From positions 62,001 through 126,000 of the forward strand of contig NZ_JAEULM010000002.1 in the NCBI RefSeq assembly GCF_016793825.1: a DNA stretch of 64,000 bases, written 5' to 3'. This DNA is from Sphingopyxis sp. (lineage in GTDB: Bacteria > Pseudomonadota > Alphaproteobacteria > Sphingomonadales > Sphingomonadaceae). Shown in pieces: positions 29,147-34,705 of the stretch (position 1 is its first letter; each line of letters starts with the position of its first letter). A model generated the notes under the pieces. That model did no database searches and was not told where the DNA came from. It saw only the letters and a list, made by a program, of their open reading frames with translations. The translations under genes were made by a program, and so were the position numbers.

Positions 29147-29166
29147 CCTGGGGTCGGGACCCTAGC
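29147..29166. repeat. 20-bp palindrome copy at a convergent gene junction
   Basis: CCTGGGGTCGGGACCCTAGC matches 17 of 20 bases of the perfect copy at 39660-39679 (minus-strand reading). It lies between the deaminase stop and the RNase H-like gene, whose TAG stop (29164-29162 on the minus strand) is inside it. Arms GGGTC/GACCC can form a short hairpin. Confidence 0.6.
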
Positions 29167-29545
29167 GGGGATGCAGTCTGGCGAGCGCGATCCCGGCCAG
29201 ATTCTGCGACCGGCCGACATGCCGGATCCGCGGCGCGCACCCCCCGTCCGCGATATCGCGAAACATCGCGAGATACTGCGCCGCGGTGCCGCTGACGCGA
29301 ACCGCCCCGGTCGCCTGCGCCACCACGGCCGCCGCATCGCCCAGCAGGATGAACTCCTCGATCCCCCCCGCGCGCGCCAGCCGGAGCGCGGCGATCAGCG
29401 CGAGCCATTCGGCATCGAGGCTGCTGCCGTGCCCCAGATCGCGCTCGATCGTCGCAATCCCGCCGATCACGACGGCGATCTCCATCGGTCCGGGGTTCGG
29501 CCGACACCCGCCGTCGAAATAGATTTTGGTGCGGCGCGCGATCAC
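29162..29545 (-). CDS. RNase H-like protein, last active-site Asp apparently lost
   Basis: 127 residues of RNase HI fold. KIYFDGGCRPNPG holds the first catalytic Asp, SLDAEWLALIAALRLA the Glu, FILLGDAAAVVAQ the second Asp. The C-terminal block, where related proteins have NxxAD, reads RSQNLAGIALARLHPR, with Gly at the fourth acidic position. The protein may be a reduced-activity or non-catalytic member, or belong to a subgroup using a different residue. RNA-DNA hybrid cleavage is therefore not assured. Convergent with the deaminase gene. Confidence 0.75.
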   Translation of the reverse strand: MIARRTKIYFDGGCRPNPGPMEIAVVIGGIATIERDLGHGSSLDAEWLALIAALRLARAGGIEEFILLGDAAAVVAQATGAVRVSGTAAQYLAMFRDIADGGCAPRIRHVGRSQNLAGIALARLHPR

Positions 29546-29620: not shown

Positions 29621-31720
29621 TCAAAACTTCCCGCGGACCGAGAAGGCGAAGATCGGGCCGATCAGCCGGTCGCGCTTTTCAACGAATGCGATCGGGCTTG
29701 CACCGCGTATATCGGTGTAGACCGTGCGGTCGCGCTTCGACCGCGCGTTCGCGATGTTCGAGATCTGGGCGCGGACCGTCATCCCGAACACATCCTTATG
29801 CTCGACGAAGACGTCGGCGAAGACCGGCCCCTCCCAGACCTTGTCCGACTGGCTGCGACGGTAGTTGGGCTGGTAGTGGCCGTAATTGCCCGAAATACCC
29901 CACGCCCAGTTGCTCGCGGGAATATCATGGCGCACGCCGAGTTCTATGACCGTGTCGGTAAAGCCGCTCCACTGCCGCTTTTCGCCGGTGAAGGGATCGC
30001 GCAGCGAGCTTTTCTGCAACAGCACGCGCGTTTCGACCTTCATCCCCTTGATTCCCGCCGGGTCGAGGTTGATCGTCGATGTCCAGTCGATCGCGCCAGC
30101 TTTTGCTTTCGCGATATTGCCGACCGCCTCGCCGTCGGCGCCCACAGGGATCACGTCGACGCGGTCTTCCACGTCGCGATAGATCAGCATGATCTTCGTC
30201 GAACCCCACGCACCGAATTTCTTGTTGATCTCGGCCTCATAGGTCCAGTCCTGCTGCGGCCGCAGGTCGTTGTTGCTTTCGTTCTGGTTGCCGTCGTTGA
30301 GGAAAGCGCGGGCAAGGAAATCATAGAAGCTGAGCTGAAGCACGCGGCGGCGCAGTTTCACCGACACATCGAAATCGGCCGACGGCGTCCAGGCGAACGA
30401 GATCGATCCCTTGGGGCGGAAGAAGCTGCGCGTCAGCCCGTTCGGGCCGGTCTGGGTGATCGTCGAATGCTCGGCACCGGCAATGATCTGGAAATTGAGC
30501 GTGTCGGTCAGCCTGCGCCCGAAACTCAGCAGCCCTTCGTAACGATCCTCGCTCACGCCGCCGGTGCCGCCGTCAAAAGGCAGGTCGACGAACACGCCCG
30601 ACGGATCAAGCGCCGCGATCGACGCGACATTGTCCAGCGTGTTGAACGCCGCTTCGCCCGAAAGCTGCCAGTCGCCGCCGAACATCTTCCACTGATATTC
30701 GCCGCGCGCGATCGTCTCGCCGAGATCGCCGACCTGTTGGAAGCGGTCGCCGGTCGCTACGCCGGTTGCCGGGGTCGTGATGATTTCCTGCGAATAGGGT
30801 TCATGGCTGAAACGGCGAAGGCCGATCAGCTTGAGCTTTCCGGGGCCGAATCCAAACTGGTAATCGCCCGAGATTTCATAATTCCAGCTATCGCTATTTT
30901 CGCGCACGGTGCGCAGGCGGTCGGGCAGGCCGGGGCCGGTGCGGACGCCATCTTCGTAATAGCGGTCGTACTTGCGCTGATACTGACCGCCCAGATTGGC
31001 GATGGTGTCGCCCGGCGGGTCCCAGGTGATTCTGCCCGACAGCTTGGGCGTGTCATAATGCGTATTCCAGATGTCCTTGCGCCGCTCGATGATCTGGCCC
31101 GCACCGTCGTAAATCAGCGTCGGGCCGCCGGCGCCGCTGCGCGAAGATTCGTCGTTGCTGAGCGCGGCTTCATATTCGACCTGTCCGGCGCGGCCGCGAA
31201 CCGACACGTCGCCGCGCGTAAAGAGCGGATCGGTGTAATGCGCCCGAAACTGGGGTTTCCACGAAAACTGGCCCGAAAAGCTGTCGGCGCGATAGACGAT
31301 ATTGGCGACCTGCCCCGAAAGCCCCGGGATATCGAGCGTCGCGCCATCGACGATTTCGATCCGTTCGACGTTGGCCGCCGGGATGCGCGACAGCTGGGTG
31401 TACATGTCGTCGCCCTTGTTCGACGGCCTTTCGCCGTTGAACAGGACATTGCCCGTCGCCTGCCCCAACCCGCGCAGATTCTCGTTGTCGCGGATCGCGA
31501 AGCCTGGAACCTGTGCCAGCATGTCATAGGCGTTCTTCGGCGCATAGCGCGCGAAATCGGCCTGCGTGAACACCTGCCTCGCCGTGCTTGTAGCGGTCGC
31601 GGGCGTAGCGGCGGCCGCGGGCGGAGGTGTATCACCGGTCGGCGGCGCCACCTCCTGCGCATGCGCAGGGATGGACGACAGCACCGCCGCGACGGCCGCA
31701 AGGCTGATGACGGCTTTCAC
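29621..31720 (-). CDS. TonB-dependent outer membrane receptor
   Basis: 699 residues from a GTG at 31720 that overlaps the upstream stop (GTGA). Residues 1-22 are a signal peptide (AVISLAAVAAVLSSIPAHAQ), then an Ala/Pro/Thr-rich linker, then a plug domain (YDMLAQVPGFAIRDNENLRGLGQATGNVLFNGERP, VERIEIVDGATLDIPGLSGQVANIVYR), then a long beta-barrel ending in FSVRGKF with terminal Phe. The plug resembles receptors lacking carboxypeptidase-like domains. Ligand unknown. It closes the minus-strand cluster BlaI - M56 protease - repeat protein - receptor and is coupled to the repeat protein gene. Confidence 0.9.
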   Translation of the reverse strand: MKAVISLAAVAAVLSSIPAHAQEVAPPTGDTPPPAAAATPATATSTARQVFTQADFARYAPKNAYDMLAQVPGFAIRDNENLRGLGQATGNVLFNGERPSNKGDDMYTQLSRIPAANVERIEIVDGATLDIPGLSGQVANIVYRADSFSGQFSWKPQFRAHYTDPLFTRGDVSVRGRAGQVEYEAALSNDESSRSGAGGPTLIYDGAGQIIERRKDIWNTHYDTPKLSGRITWDPPGDTIANLGGQYQRKYDRYYEDGVRTGPGLPDRLRTVRENSDSWNYEISGDYQFGFGPGKLKLIGLRRFSHEPYSQEIITTPATGVATGDRFQQVGDLGETIARGEYQWKMFGGDWQLSGEAAFNTLDNVASIAALDPSGVFVDLPFDGGTGGVSEDRYEGLLSFGRRLTDTLNFQIIAGAEHSTITQTGPNGLTRSFFRPKGSISFAWTPSADFDVSVKLRRRVLQLSFYDFLARAFLNDGNQNESNNDLRPQQDWTYEAEINKKFGAWGSTKIMLIYRDVEDRVDVIPVGADGEAVGNIAKAKAGAIDWTSTINLDPAGIKGMKVETRVLLQKSSLRDPFTGEKRQWSGFTDTVIELGVRHDIPASNWAWGISGNYGHYQPNYRRSQSDKVWEGPVFADVFVEHKDVFGMTVRAQISNIANARSKRDRTVYTDIRGASPIAFVEKRDRLIGPIFAFSVRGKF

Positions 31721-32454
31721 TGGCCGCTCCCCCGCGCGCGATTGATCGCCTGCGCATATTCGCCCGAAACCCCCATCGCTTTCATGCCGACGACATCGTC
31801 GGCGCTCAGCCCGCGATACCCCGCATCGGCGAGCGAGCGCACATAGGCGCCGTCGACGCCCAGCGCCTTGCACGCGATCGCGTCCTCGACGTCCGACAGC
31901 GCCAGCGCTTCGGACTTCAGGTCGCGCACATAGGACGGCGTCACCTCCAGCGCCGCGGCGGCGATCAGGTCGCCGTTGTCCTTCGGCTTGACGCCTTCAG
32001 CCGACAGCCCGTCGGCAAGCTCGATCGTCGCATCGACCAGCAGCATCGCCAGCAGCTCGTCGCGGTCGTCGGGAGCCAGCCCGCGCGACGCAAGCGCGCG
32101 CTCGAACCCCGGATCGGCGTTGAAGCGGCAGCGGCCGGCACCGTCGAACGCGCTCTTGAGCGTTCCCGAACAGGCGAGTGTCCCCGATGCATGGACGATC
32201 GTGAAGGAAACCGGCCCAGCCGCGCCTTGCAGCACGGCCTCGGTACCCGCGAGTTCGCGACGCGAACCATCGATCGCGACGTCGCTGCTCGATGTCTTGC
32301 GGCTGACGCGCAGGTGCGACTTGCCCTTGCCGTCCGCCGGGACGACTTTCCACGCGATGTCGTCGAGGACAAGCTGGTCGGCGGCGGTGCTGGGCGCGGC
32401 GCAGGCGATCACCGACAGCAAGGCGGTGCCGGCGACGAGATACAGGTTTTTCAT
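31717..32454 (-). CDS. Exported repeat protein, partner of the M56 protease
   Basis: 245 residues. MKNLYLVAGTALLSVIACAAPSTAAD is a signal peptide. The middle part (about 26-140) has a beta-rich pattern with two Cys (LACSG, GRCRF). The last hundred residues hold three units of about 28 residues with the pattern LSxDDVxxMKAMGVxxxYxxxI (for example DVEDAIACKALGVDGAYVRSL and ADDVVGMKAMGVSGEYAQAI). The same units make up the C-terminal domain of the M56 protease encoded upstream. RBS GGAGGGAGGAG is strong. No known enzyme motif. Shared repeats suggest direct or competitive interaction with the protease; this is inference. Confidence 0.82.
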   Translation of the reverse strand: MKNLYLVAGTALLSVIACAAPSTAADQLVLDDIAWKVVPADGKGKSHLRVSRKTSSSDVAIDGSRRELAGTEAVLQGAAGPVSFTIVHASGTLACSGTLKSAFDGAGRCRFNADPGFERALASRGLAPDDRDELLAMLLVDATIELADGLSAEGVKPKDNGDLIAAAALEVTPSYVRDLKSEALALSDVEDAIACKALGVDGAYVRSLADAGYRGLSADDVVGMKAMGVSGEYAQAINRARGSGQ

Positions 32455-32566
32455 GGGCGTGCTCCTCCCTCCGTGCGCCGCGCAAGCGTCATCGCTCGCC
32501 GCCGCAGCGGGAATTCAAAACTGGGGTTCGATCAACGGGTGGCGAGGTTGGACGAACGTCCGAACG

Positions 32567-34285
32567 TCAGCTCCGTGGCGGGACCGGCGGGGTTACCGGT
32601 TCCAGAGGTTGGGGCGGCTCGGGCGCCTCGATCCGCGCAAGCCGGCCATCGGCGCTGCGCGCCTCGATCACCGGGCCGGGACCGATGCGGACCGTCGCCC
32701 CGCTTTTCGACACGGCGACCTTTGCCGCCTTCTTTCCGGGTGGATAGGCGCCGGTCGCGCGGAGTTCGATCGCGTCATCGACATCGCGGAGCTTGACACC
32801 GGCGCGGCGCATTTCGGTAACGAAGTCGCAGTCCACGCCCATCGCCTTCAGCGCGATCAGGTCATCGATCCCGATACCGGGGAAATGCTCCTTCATGTCG
32901 CGGGCGAAAGCAACGTCGATCCCGATCTTCCTGGCGCCGATCAGCTCATCCAGATCGGCATCGGGGATGATCGAACGCATCCGCCCGATATAGGCCGGAT
33001 CGACGCCGGTCGCCTTGGCCGCGATGATATCGTCGGGATCCATCGAACCGCCATGTTCGCGCATCTGCGCAACATATTCGGGGGTCACACCGACCGCGCG
33101 CATGCCGACCAGCTCGTCGGCGCTGAGCGGCCGCGAGGCGGCAGCCTCTTTCGCATTCTTCTCCGCAACGTCGCGCGCCGCCACCGCGGCCTGCGCCGAA
33201 GCAATTGCGGTTTCGCGCGATGTGAGCGCAACGGCGCGGGCGTCCATGGCCGCCTCCTTGTCCGCGGTGGCGGAGAAGGCCGCCAACGGAGCCGTGATGC
33301 CCGCCAGCAGGATCAGGCTCATCAACATCCAGCTCGCGCTCGCCGGCCCGCGCTTCAGGCTGCCATCCAGAACGCGGGTGATCCGCCGCTTGAGGCTGTC
33401 CTTGCCCGGTGCGACGCCATGCGCGGCCAGCAGCGCGGCCTGATTATCGTGCCGAGCCGCGCCAACCAGCAGCGTCGCATAGTCGGGGCCATCGATGTCG
33501 GCGAGCAGCACCGCATCATCGGCGGCCTCTTCGCGCAGTTGATGACTTTCGCGCGCGAGCATCCACACCAGCGGATTGAACCAGAATACCGCGCAGGCAA
33601 CGCGCGCGCCGAGCAGCTTGGCCCAGTCGAGACGCGCGACGTGCGCCAGTTCGTGCGCGATGATCGCCTCGGCCTCACCGACGGCGCCGACCGCCTTCGG
33701 GCTCAGCACGATCGTCGGGCGCAGCACGCCCCAGCTGATCGGCGAGCGCAGTTCCTCGCTGACCAGCAGCGCAGTGCCATGCTTGAAGCCCATGCGGCGC
33801 TGCGCTTCGGCGAGCGCCGACAACCACGAACGCTCGACAAGAATCTCGGCGCGCGAGCGCATCGCGAACAGCCGCACCACGGCGAGCAGCATCATTCCGC
33901 ACAGCAAGGCCAGCGGAACGAGATAGAGAAAGGGGGCAAGATCGGTCGCCGATGGCAACATCGACGGAGTCGACCCGGCCAGGTCCGCCACGGCAGGGAC
34001 TGACGCCGTGGCGGAGGCCGGATCGACCGCCGATCCCCCTGTTGTCGCAATCTTTTGGGCGGTCGCAGGCGCTGCATCGGCGAACCAGTGGCCGGGCAGC
34101 GGTGCCCATTTCGGGAGCAGCAGGATCGCTGCGGGCAGCGCGAGCAGCGCCGTCAAACCCGCATGGGCGATCATCGACCGCTCACCCGCCGACCGCTGTC
34201 GCGCAAGGCGCAGCAGCCCCAGCGTCAGGCCGGCGATGACCAGCGATTTCCAGGCAAGGCCCAGCAGCATGGCGGTCGTCATCAT
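32567..34285 (-). CDS. M56 family (BlaR1-like) membrane metallopeptidase with C-terminal repeats
   Basis: 572 residues. Three N-terminal hydrophobic segments (about 5-25, 40-57, 118-140), a peptidase domain with zinc motif HELAH (211-215) and a candidate third ligand in REEAADDAVL (251-260), then a fourth membrane segment (319-340). Residues 388-510 are about four and a half repeats of roughly 28 residues: ELVGMRAVGVTPEYVAQMRE, DIIAAKATGVDPAYIGRMRS, ELIGARKIGIDVAFARDMKE, DLIALKAMGVDCDFVTEMRR. In BlaR1 this position holds the penicillin sensor, outside the membrane. Known BlaR1 proteases inactivate BlaI when the sensor is occupied. ATG overlaps the BlaI stop (ATGA). A proline-rich tail ends the protein. 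Confidence 0.88.
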   Translation of the reverse strand: MMTTAMLLGLAWKSLVIAGLTLGLLRLARQRSAGERSMIAHAGLTALLALPAAILLLPKWAPLPGHWFADAAPATAQKIATTGGSAVDPASATASVPAVADLAGSTPSMLPSATDLAPFLYLVPLALLCGMMLLAVVRLFAMRSRAEILVERSWLSALAEAQRRMGFKHGTALLVSEELRSPISWGVLRPTIVLSPKAVGAVGEAEAIIAHELAHVARLDWAKLLGARVACAVFWFNPLVWMLARESHQLREEAADDAVLLADIDGPDYATLLVGAARHDNQAALLAAHGVAPGKDSLKRRITRVLDGSLKRGPASASWMLMSLILLAGITAPLAAFSATADKEAAMDARAVALTSRETAIASAQAAVAARDVAEKNAKEAAASRPLSADELVGMRAVGVTPEYVAQMREHGGSMDPDDIIAAKATGVDPAYIGRMRSIIPDADLDELIGARKIGIDVAFARDMKEHFPGIGIDDLIALKAMGVDCDFVTEMRRAGVKLRDVDDAIELRATGAYPPGKKAAKVAVSKSGATVRIGPGPVIEARSADGRLARIEAPEPPQPLEPVTPPVPPRS

Positions 34286-34659
34286 TGCATCCTCCCGTCG
34301 CGGGCTTTCGCGATCATTTTTTCGAGTTCGTCGAGCTCGGCGCCCGTCATCTCGTCCTGCATGCCGAGCAGCGCCGCCGCGGCGCTCGTGGCCGATCCGT
34401 TGAAGAAAACGCGCACCACCTGGCTCAGTGCCGATTTGCGCGCCGTCTTGTCCGACACGCTCGGCGCATAGACGAAGCCACGATCCGACGCCTCGCGTGC
34501 GACAAAGCCTTTCGCCTCCAGCCGCTTCAGCATCGCGCGGATCGCCGAACCCGACAATTCGTCGGACAACGCCTCGCCGATCTCGGTCACCGTAGAGGCG
34601 CCGCGTTCATAAAGGACGTCGACAATCTCGCGTTCTCGTGGGGGCAGGCTCGACAACAT
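34282..34659 (-). CDS. BlaI/MecI/CopY family repressor
   Basis: 125 residues. SSLPPREREIVDVLYERGASTVTEIGEALSDELSGSAIRAMLKRLEAKGFVAREASDRGFVYAPSVS is a BlaI-type winged helix; the C-terminal part (KTARKSALSQVVRVFFNGSATSAAAALL) is the dimerisation helix that BlaR1-type proteases act on. ATG at 34659 has GAGGTG seven bases upstream; a GTG at 34668 is an alternative. Two perfect operators lie just upstream, so it likely represses its own operon. Coupled to the M56 gene by ATGA. Confidence 0.9.
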   Translation of the reverse strand: MLSSLPPREREIVDVLYERGASTVTEIGEALSDELSGSAIRAMLKRLEAKGFVAREASDRGFVYAPSVSDKTARKSALSQVVRVFFNGSATSAAAALLGMQDEMTGAELDELEKMIAKARDGRMQ

Positions 34660-34675
34660 TCGAATCACCTCATGC

Positions 34676-34705
34676 GCTACATTTGTAGCGTGCTACATTT
34701 GTAGC
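34676..34705. promoter_or_regulatory. Tandem BlaI-type operators
   Basis: GCTACATTTGTAGC occurs twice, at 34676-34689 and 34692-34705, both perfect dyads with TACA/TGTA cores, 16 bases apart. The inner TACA-xx-TGTA matches the known BlaI/MecI operator core. They sit within 20-50 bases of the BlaI start, so binding would block the promoter of the minus-strand operon. The divergent corA start is about 145 bases away. Confidence 0.85.

What the first reader, a model, noticed from the sequence alone, without database searches (positions are those of the whole stretch)
29621..34705. BlaI / M56 protease / repeat-protein / TonB-receptor cluster with a shared ~28-residue repeat
Seen: a BlaI-type gene with two perfect tandem operators, coupled by ATGA to an M56 protease whose C-terminal region (residues 388-510) is about 4.5 repeats with consensus DLIxhKAxGVxxxYhxxMR. 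Downstream an exported 245-residue protein carries three units of the same repeat, then a TonB-dependent receptor coupled by GTGA. Known: in BlaR1 this position outside the membrane holds the penicillin sensor. Inference: the repeats are a different sensor, and the exported protein may be a periplasmic ligand, antagonist or receptor partner, with the TonB protein as the regulated output or signal source.
Basis: partly seen in the sequence, partly recalled or inferred. Interest (0 to 1): 0.8.

Follow-up and report, generated by a model that had tools for sequence, protein, structure and literature searches.

The report
BlaI-protease operon with solenoid sensor
Bacteria related to Sphingopyxis carry a four-gene unit in which a membrane protease of the penicillin-sensor type has an unrelated coil of small helical repeats as its outside part, next to a secreted copy of the same repeat module and an outer-membrane receptor, and a fused version of the design in a distant bacterial phylum suggests that the two repeat proteins work together.

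Summary
On the minus strand blaI, an M56 (BlaR1-type) protease gene, an exported repeat protein (EXP) and a TonB-dependent receptor (TBDT) follow each other, coupled except for a 112-nt gap before EXP. The M56 tail models as 4.5 helical hairpins behind the fourth membrane helix; no penicillin-sensor domain was found. EXP is a small beta domain plus three clear repeats and a degenerate one. The repeat match between the two proteins is far above shuffles. The four genes keep their order in 26 of 29 same-genus loci, 3 being cut, and all four are present in 47 of 54 Sphingomonadales loci of a wider scan. BlaI-type dyads precede blaI in 50 of 50 such loci with blaI. In 22 of 25 Bacteroidota loci the beta domain plus repeats is fused to the M56 protease. 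I read it as an autoregulated BlaI/BlaR1-type circuit in which EXP is a detached copy of the receptor's sensing part and the TBDT a frequent output. Signal, EXP-M56 contact and the direction of EXP's effect are unknown. A new variant of a known kind.

The parts
34676..34705 (-). two tandem BlaI-type operators, each GCTACAAATGTAGC on the minus strand
   Evidence: the only two exact copies in the genome; TACAnnTGTA upstream of blaI in 50 of 50 Sphingomonadales census loci with blaI
34282..34668 (-). blaI, BlaI/MecI/CopY-type repressor, 128 aa, GTG start
   Evidence: PF03965 79.6 bits, cut-off 22.6
32567..34285 (-). M56 membrane protease, 572 aa
33641..33655 (-). HELAH zinc motif of the M56 protease (residues 211-215)
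   Evidence: invariant in alignment A5, 46 sequences; HExxH followed by E...D in 76 of 77 census M56 ORFs, the miss being a 251-aa ORF in another frame over a real M56 gene
32753..33124 (-). solenoid of 4.5 helical-hairpin repeats, M56 residues 388-511, periplasmic by inference
   Evidence: model helices 389-511; profile and shuffle tests
32627..32722 (-). small C-terminal beta element, M56 residues 522-553
   Evidence: four strands in the model, block pLDDT 69-81
32481..32500 (-). conserved 8-bp hairpin in the M56-EXP gap, meaning unknown
   Evidence: 195 of 200 cells paired in 25 sequences, but no two-sided change and shuffles equal; fold energy z 0.06
31717..32454 (-). EXP, exported 245-aa protein: hydrophobic N-terminus like a signal peptide, beta domain, repeats
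   Evidence: model pLDDT 87.8, pTM 0.81; hydrophobic stretch 4-22; no Pfam or NCBIfam match for this protein
32116..32370 (-). EXP beta domain, residues 29-113
   Evidence: model strands; Cys95 and Cys109 both present in 44 of 52 family members and both absent in 8
31732..32064 (-). EXP repeats, residues 131-241 (first one degenerate)
   Evidence: model helices; profile score against shuffles
29621..31720 (-). TonB-dependent receptor, 699 aa from a GTG that overlaps the EXP stop
   Evidence: PF07715 Plug 43.5 bits, cut-off 23.9; EXP-TBDT spacing -4 in 18, -1 in 4 and +5 nt in 2 of 24 units measured (23 same-genus loci by script, the window by hand; the other 6 of the 29 loci not measured)

Best explanation
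This is an autoregulated BlaI/BlaR1-type circuit with a different sensor. BlaI binds the two tandem dyads 8 to 37 nt before its own gene and keeps the whole unit (blaI, M56, EXP, TBDT) low. The M56 protein sits in the inner membrane with its zinc protease facing the cytoplasm and its repeat solenoid in the periplasm. When the solenoid meets its signal the protease is switched on and cuts BlaI, as BlaR1 does, and the unit is expressed: more sensor, more EXP and the outer-membrane receptor. EXP is a detached, soluble copy of the sensing module that Bacteroidota carry fused to the protease; it most likely docks on the M56 solenoid or shares its ligand and so tunes the receptor. Shown: gene order, domains, dyads, fusions. 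Inferred: periplasmic location (from topology and signal-like N-terminus), binding and repression, promoter position, proteolysis of BlaI, cotranscription, EXP-M56 contact. Not known: the signal, and whether EXP helps or dampens signalling.
For: Protease part: M56 family over cut-off, four membrane helices and a BlaR1-like fold, BlaR1 as best solved relative by profile, E 4e-6. Sensor replaced: no Pfam match in the tail at E up to 1, helical repeats in the model. Unit conserved: four genes in order in 26 of 29 same-genus loci, 3 cut by contig ends, while neighbours vary (CorA hit in 7, RNase H-like in 24 of the 29 stretches); all four in 47 of 54 Sphingomonadales census loci. EXP with receptor: beta domain plus repeats behind the M56 protease in one protein in 22 of 25 Bacteroidota loci; of the other 3, two are cut and one falls below the protease threshold (Pfam checked on two of them, L163 and L184, both over cut-off). 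EXP beside M56 on one Myxococcaceae MAG contig (L194). Autoregulation: 97 TACAnnTGTA sites in 16,780 bases before blaI against 2 in 732,527 bases elsewhere in the 74 loci with blaI; in 23 of 23 Bacteroidota loci with blaI a different dyad, CTAATnnATTAG, at the same place and nowhere else in those loci (motif read off the same promoters, so post hoc). Oxidising compartment: all-or-none cysteine pair in EXP.
Against: Three genomes (L109, L110, L111) keep BlaI, repeat-M56 and TBDT and show no EXP, so EXP is not always needed. Three census loci (L172, L180, L192), and L101 and L103, keep BlaI, M56 and EXP with no TBDT recognised nearby; in 6 of the 50 census loci with a TBDT it is a distant one (profile E 1e-69 to 1e-21; in L171 one gene away, in L169 split over two ORFs); in Bacteroidota a Sphingopyxis-based TBDT profile finds none. 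So the TBDT is not a universal output. One census locus (L188, Sphingomonas horti) has EXP alone. EXP was not found in 7 of 35 other same-genus genomes. The promoter scan finds no sigma-70-like site at blaI. The 112-nt gap could hide a second promoter. No expression, binding or cleavage data; only single proteins were modelled.
Confidence: 0.55

Rival explanations
1. EXP is a negative-feedback decoy: a soluble copy of the receptor ectodomain, made when the unit is on, that soaks up the ligand or blocks the M56 solenoid and shuts the circuit down.
For: EXP lies in the unit behind the receptor gene, with dyads only before blaI; Bacteroidota that already have the module in M56 add one or two free EXP copies behind it in 6 of 25 loci.
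Against: Nothing here shows the direction of the effect; in Sphingomonadales the beta domain was recognised only in EXP and not in M56, which suits a needed sensor part as well.
Confidence: 0.25
2. EXP works with the TBDT: a periplasmic binding protein that takes over the imported compound, while the M56 solenoid reads the same compound.
Against: EXP occurs with no TBDT recognised in 3 of 54 Sphingomonadales census loci and in Bacteroidota (the Myxococcaceae contig ends inside EXP); TBDT occurs with M56 but without EXP in 3 genomes; the fold match is in the range the tool calls non-specific.
Confidence: 0.12
3. The TBDT is the signal source, as in FecA-type transducers, passing a signal to the M56 solenoid through the periplasm.
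For: M56 and TBDT stay together even where EXP is missing (L109-L111).
Against: No signalling (STN-type) domain matched in the TBDT; M56 units with no TBDT recognised exist.
Confidence: 0.08

Closest known systems
BlaR1/BlaI of Staphylococcus aureus (and MecR1/MecI)
   Same: Repressor plus M56 membrane protease; same protease fold and membrane layout with the C-terminal domain outside. BlaR1 facts from passages of PMC9834060; comparison.
   Different: Sensor is a helical-repeat solenoid, not a penicillin-binding domain; a separate exported copy of the module exists; the neighbouring gene is an outer-membrane receptor, not a resistance gene.
CopY/TcrY copper repressors
   Same: Same repressor family: TIGR02698 scores 37.7 bits, far under its cut-off of 121.95. 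TACAnnTGTA box (recalled, from no call).
   Different: No copper transporter in the unit; a protease gene is coupled to the repressor instead.
FecA-type TonB-dependent transducers
   Same: An outer-membrane TonB receptor tied to a regulatory system of the inner membrane (recalled).
   Different: No STN-type domain matched; no sigma or anti-sigma factor among the four genes.
TALE-type helical repeats
   Different: A smaller profile (A3) and the single sequence do not find them; unit length 28-29 here, 34 in TALEs (recalled); exported here. Probably a shared arrangement only.

Membership tests
Peptidase family M56 (BlaR1 peptidase) | family profile over curated cut-off | tested here: met
   PF05569 97.3 bits, cut-off 31
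Peptidase family M56 (BlaR1 peptidase) | HExxH zinc motif with downstream E...D | tested here: met
Peptidase family M56 (BlaR1 peptidase) | four membrane helices with the protease between the third and fourth | tested here: met
   hydrophobic stretches, model helices 4-27, 33-56, 113-145, 317-336, BlaR1 entries as top structural matches
BlaR1/MecR1 beta-lactam sensor | C-terminal penicillin-binding (SxxK) sensor domain | tested here: not met
   no Pfam match in the tail at E up to 1; helical repeats in the model
BlaR1/MecR1 beta-lactam sensor | NCBIfam blaR1_generic over cut-off | tested here: not met
   66 bits, cut-off 400, matched stretch 119-310 only
BlaR1/MecR1 beta-lactam sensor | cleavage of the cognate repressor on signal | not testable with these tools
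   needs an experiment
BlaI/MecI/CopY repressors | Penicillinase_R profile over cut-off | tested here: met
   79.6 bits, cut-off 22.6
BlaI/MecI/CopY repressors | dyad operator of the type TACAnnTGTA at the own promoter | tested here: met
   the consensus itself is recalled, and binding is not shown
TonB-dependent receptors | plug domain | tested here: met
   PF07715 43.5 bits, cut-off 23.9
TonB-dependent receptors | 22-strand beta barrel and TonB box | not tested
   no barrel profile matched; the protein was not modelled
TonB-dependent transducers (FecA type) | N-terminal STN signalling domain | tested here: not met
   no match at E up to 1 in Pfam or NCBIfam
TALE repeats | 34-residue DNA-binding helical repeats | tested here: inconclusive

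The most novel reading that the evidence does not exclude
A family of BlaR1-type receptors in Pseudomonadota and Bacteroidota (and on one Myxococcota MAG contig) senses the periplasm with an unnamed helical-repeat solenoid and a small beta domain. The sensing module is fused to the protease in Bacteroidota and detached as an exported protein in Sphingomonadales, so M56 signalling there works through repeat-to-repeat docking of a soluble co-receptor, and in Sphingomonadales it controls an outer-membrane receptor.
Probability: 0.45. Interest if true: 0.75.

Novelty: new variant of a known kind. Interest (0 to 1): 0.6.

Why it matters
BlaR1 and MecR1 are known as antibiotic sensors. If M56 receptors also carry quite different sensing modules, with soluble copies in trans, this regulated-proteolysis design becomes a more general way for Gram-negative bacteria to sense the envelope and to set which outer-membrane receptors are made. 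The natural fusion in Bacteroidota gives a direct, testable pairing of EXP and M56, and neither the repeats nor the beta domain got a convincing family name from Pfam or NCBIfam.

Tried and rejected
An alignment call failed on a wrong frame in L105; I repeated it without L105 and L101. Sampling Bacteroidota and Myxococcota at random failed because only G handles may be a centre; not pursued, so frequencies in those phyla are unknown.

Family matches told in full: among 52 EXP members, 11 Pfam families match some member at E up to 0.01, at most 6 members each, best E 3e-7 (LEA_4, 4 members), RecX_HTH2 4e-6 (6 members), DUF2683 7e-6 (5 members); 8 NCBIfam families, best E 1e-3. I take these as helical-repeat noise; the window EXP itself matches none.

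Literature: searches gave listings with starts of abstracts (25 of 185 papers shown, 10 of 18). No title or abstract start shown describes this repeat domain or an M56 gene beside a TBDT. I saw passages only of PMC12864828 and PMC12204202 (the shown BlaI matches were author names), PMC9834060, PMC7142613, PMC10470040 (Porphyromonas tables that list a BlaI gene and an M56 gene with neighbouring locus numbers), PMC5294843 and PMC2529317. Preprints and most subscription journals are not held.

Bias: the 80 census loci are the best 80 of 98 confirmed, found with one repeat pattern and tblastn with the window EXP, so a link of EXP with M56 repeats is partly built in; BlaI, TBDT, protease and operators were not part of the selection. 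They overlap with the genomes. Genome searches scored only the best 9 or 6 candidates per genome, so misses are possible. Alignments A1 and A2 used 24 of 28 and 24 of 29 sequences, leaving out near-identical or cut ones; A3 (20), A4 (52) and A5 (46) were hand-picked for spread. Two census orders with M56 before BlaI come from ORFs extended upstream. No call sampled Acidobacteriota; that this phylum has such proteins is only my recollection.
Full report
What is there. On the minus strand of 29621-34705 lie four genes: blaI, an M56 protease gene, a gene for an exported protein (EXP) and a TonB-dependent receptor gene (TBDT). blaI and M56 overlap by ATGA, EXP and TBDT by GTGA; a 112-nt gap separates M56 and EXP. 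Pfam places blaI in Penicillinase_R, the protease in Peptidase_M56 and the receptor by its Plug domain, all over cut-off; EXP has no match. The genome is very probably Sphingopyxis: contigs of its same-genus relatives have the lengths of named Sphingopyxis contigs, for example 34672, 71956 and 754638.

The repeats are real and shared. A profile of 24 M56 tails gives the window EXP 54.0 bits, with 9.8 as the best of 5000 shuffles; a profile of 24 EXP tails gives the window M56 tail 82.7 bits, with 14.9 as the best of 5000 shuffles. A plain protein search with EXP also returns the M56 tail next door (E 3e-8 in the own genome). In the AlphaFold2 models the M56 tail is 4.5 helical hairpins, residues 389-511, and EXP is a six-stranded beta domain with one helix, followed by four hairpins of which the first is degenerate. 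Models: EXP pLDDT 87.8, pTM 0.81; M56 pLDDT 80.7, pTM 0.59, with 73-106 and the linker 345-372 not confident.

The unit is conserved. EXP is found in 28 of 35 other same-genus genomes. Of 29 loci fetched from these 28 genomes, 26 have all four genes in order and 3 are cut by contig ends, while flanking genes differ. EXP and TBDT overlap in 22 of 24 units measured and are 5 nt apart in 2. A profile search over 296 genomes of the order, own included, has a match in 22, all of the same family; in 3 of them (G073, G214, G288) only the M56 repeats match, so EXP is seen in 19. Over 349 genomes of the phylum 3 match, all same family. A scan of named genomes confirmed 98 places and kept 80. Of the 54 Sphingomonadales loci among these, 47 have BlaI, M56, EXP and TBDT, 3 lack BlaI because the contig is cut, 3 have no TBDT and 1 has EXP alone. 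In 44 of the 50 with a TBDT it is close to the window's; in 6 it is a distant one. L109-L111 have BlaI, M56 and TBDT without EXP; L101 and L103 have no TBDT hit.

The fusion. In 22 of 25 Bacteroidota loci (Mucilaginibacter, Pedobacter, Flavihumibacter and others) the beta domain and the repeats follow on the M56 protease in one protein, behind blaI; of the other three, two are cut and one falls under the protease threshold. The beta domain alone is recognised there with E 3e-5 to 1e-8; all 22 keep HExxH, and the two checked with Pfam are over the M56 cut-off. In six loci one or two free EXP copies follow. One Myxococcaceae MAG contig has BlaI, M56 and the start of EXP as separate genes. This cis-and-trans pattern is the best evidence that EXP and the M56 tail belong to one sensing device.

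Control. TACAnnTGTA dyads stand before blaI in 50 of 50 Sphingomonadales loci with blaI (two in 47, one in 3) and in none of 23 Bacteroidota and 1 Myxococcaceae loci; in all 74 loci together 97 sites fall in the 16,780 bases around the blaI start and 2 in the other 732,527. In the own genome the exact operator occurs only here, twice, so the likely regulon is this unit itself. Bacteroidota have another dyad at the same place, CTAATnnATTAG, in 23 of 23 loci (two or more in 16) and nowhere else in those loci; the motif was read off the same promoters, so this is descriptive. A second BlaI-M56 pair in the own genome has no recognised repeats and has a variant operator. The consensus scan does not see a sigma-70 promoter at blaI.

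Mechanism. By analogy with BlaR1, a periplasmic signal on the solenoid would activate the protease, which would cut BlaI and release the unit; this is inferred. EXP as a detached sensing part is inferred from the fusions; contact is untested. The TBDT as output is inferred from order and operators, and it is not universal. The direction of EXP's effect is open, and EXP is missing in three genomes that keep the rest.

Novelty. The window EXP matches no Pfam or NCBIfam family; among 52 relatives only scattered weak matches occur (best E 3e-7, at most 6 members for one family). In seven searches of the paper library no title or abstract start shown describes it; seven papers were looked at in passages (see Tried and rejected). 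The circuit type is known, the sensing module and its cis-trans arrangement appear new, so I call it a new variant of a known kind.

Noticed in passing
G000 contig C6, locus L062:5603-7671: A second BlaI-M56 pair without recognised repeats, with a variant operator ACTACAAATGTAGT just upstream; the same 14-mer sits at C40:32402, near the start of a 444-aa ORF without Pfam match. Matches at this looseness are no more than chance in number.
   Followed up: partly
32481-32500: An 8-bp hairpin in the M56-EXP gap is kept in 195 of 200 cells over 25 sequences, with G-U changes on one side only; meaning unknown.
   Followed up: partly
M56 residues 385-516 (32738-33133) and EXP repeats: Weak likeness to TALE repeats in one sequence profile and in structure alignment, not confirmed by two other queries.
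   Followed up: partly
L106 and L108 (L188 is the same contig region as L108): One Sphingomonas genome has two EXP genes with no M56 gene recognised near either.
   Followed up: no
L104:3061-5709 and L109:8755-11397: In two distant relatives a TPR/BTAD-type protein of 881-883 aa lies beside the unit.
   Followed up: no
29162-29545: An RNase H-like gene follows the TBDT and is found in 24 of 29 same-genus stretches.
   Followed up: partly
EXP residues 95 and 109: The cysteine pair is present together in 44 of 52 members and missing together in 8, which suggests a disulfide.
   Followed up: no
29627-29645: A terminator-like hairpin with a T run at the very end of the TBDT gene on the minus strand; the scan's total is near chance.
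   Followed up: no
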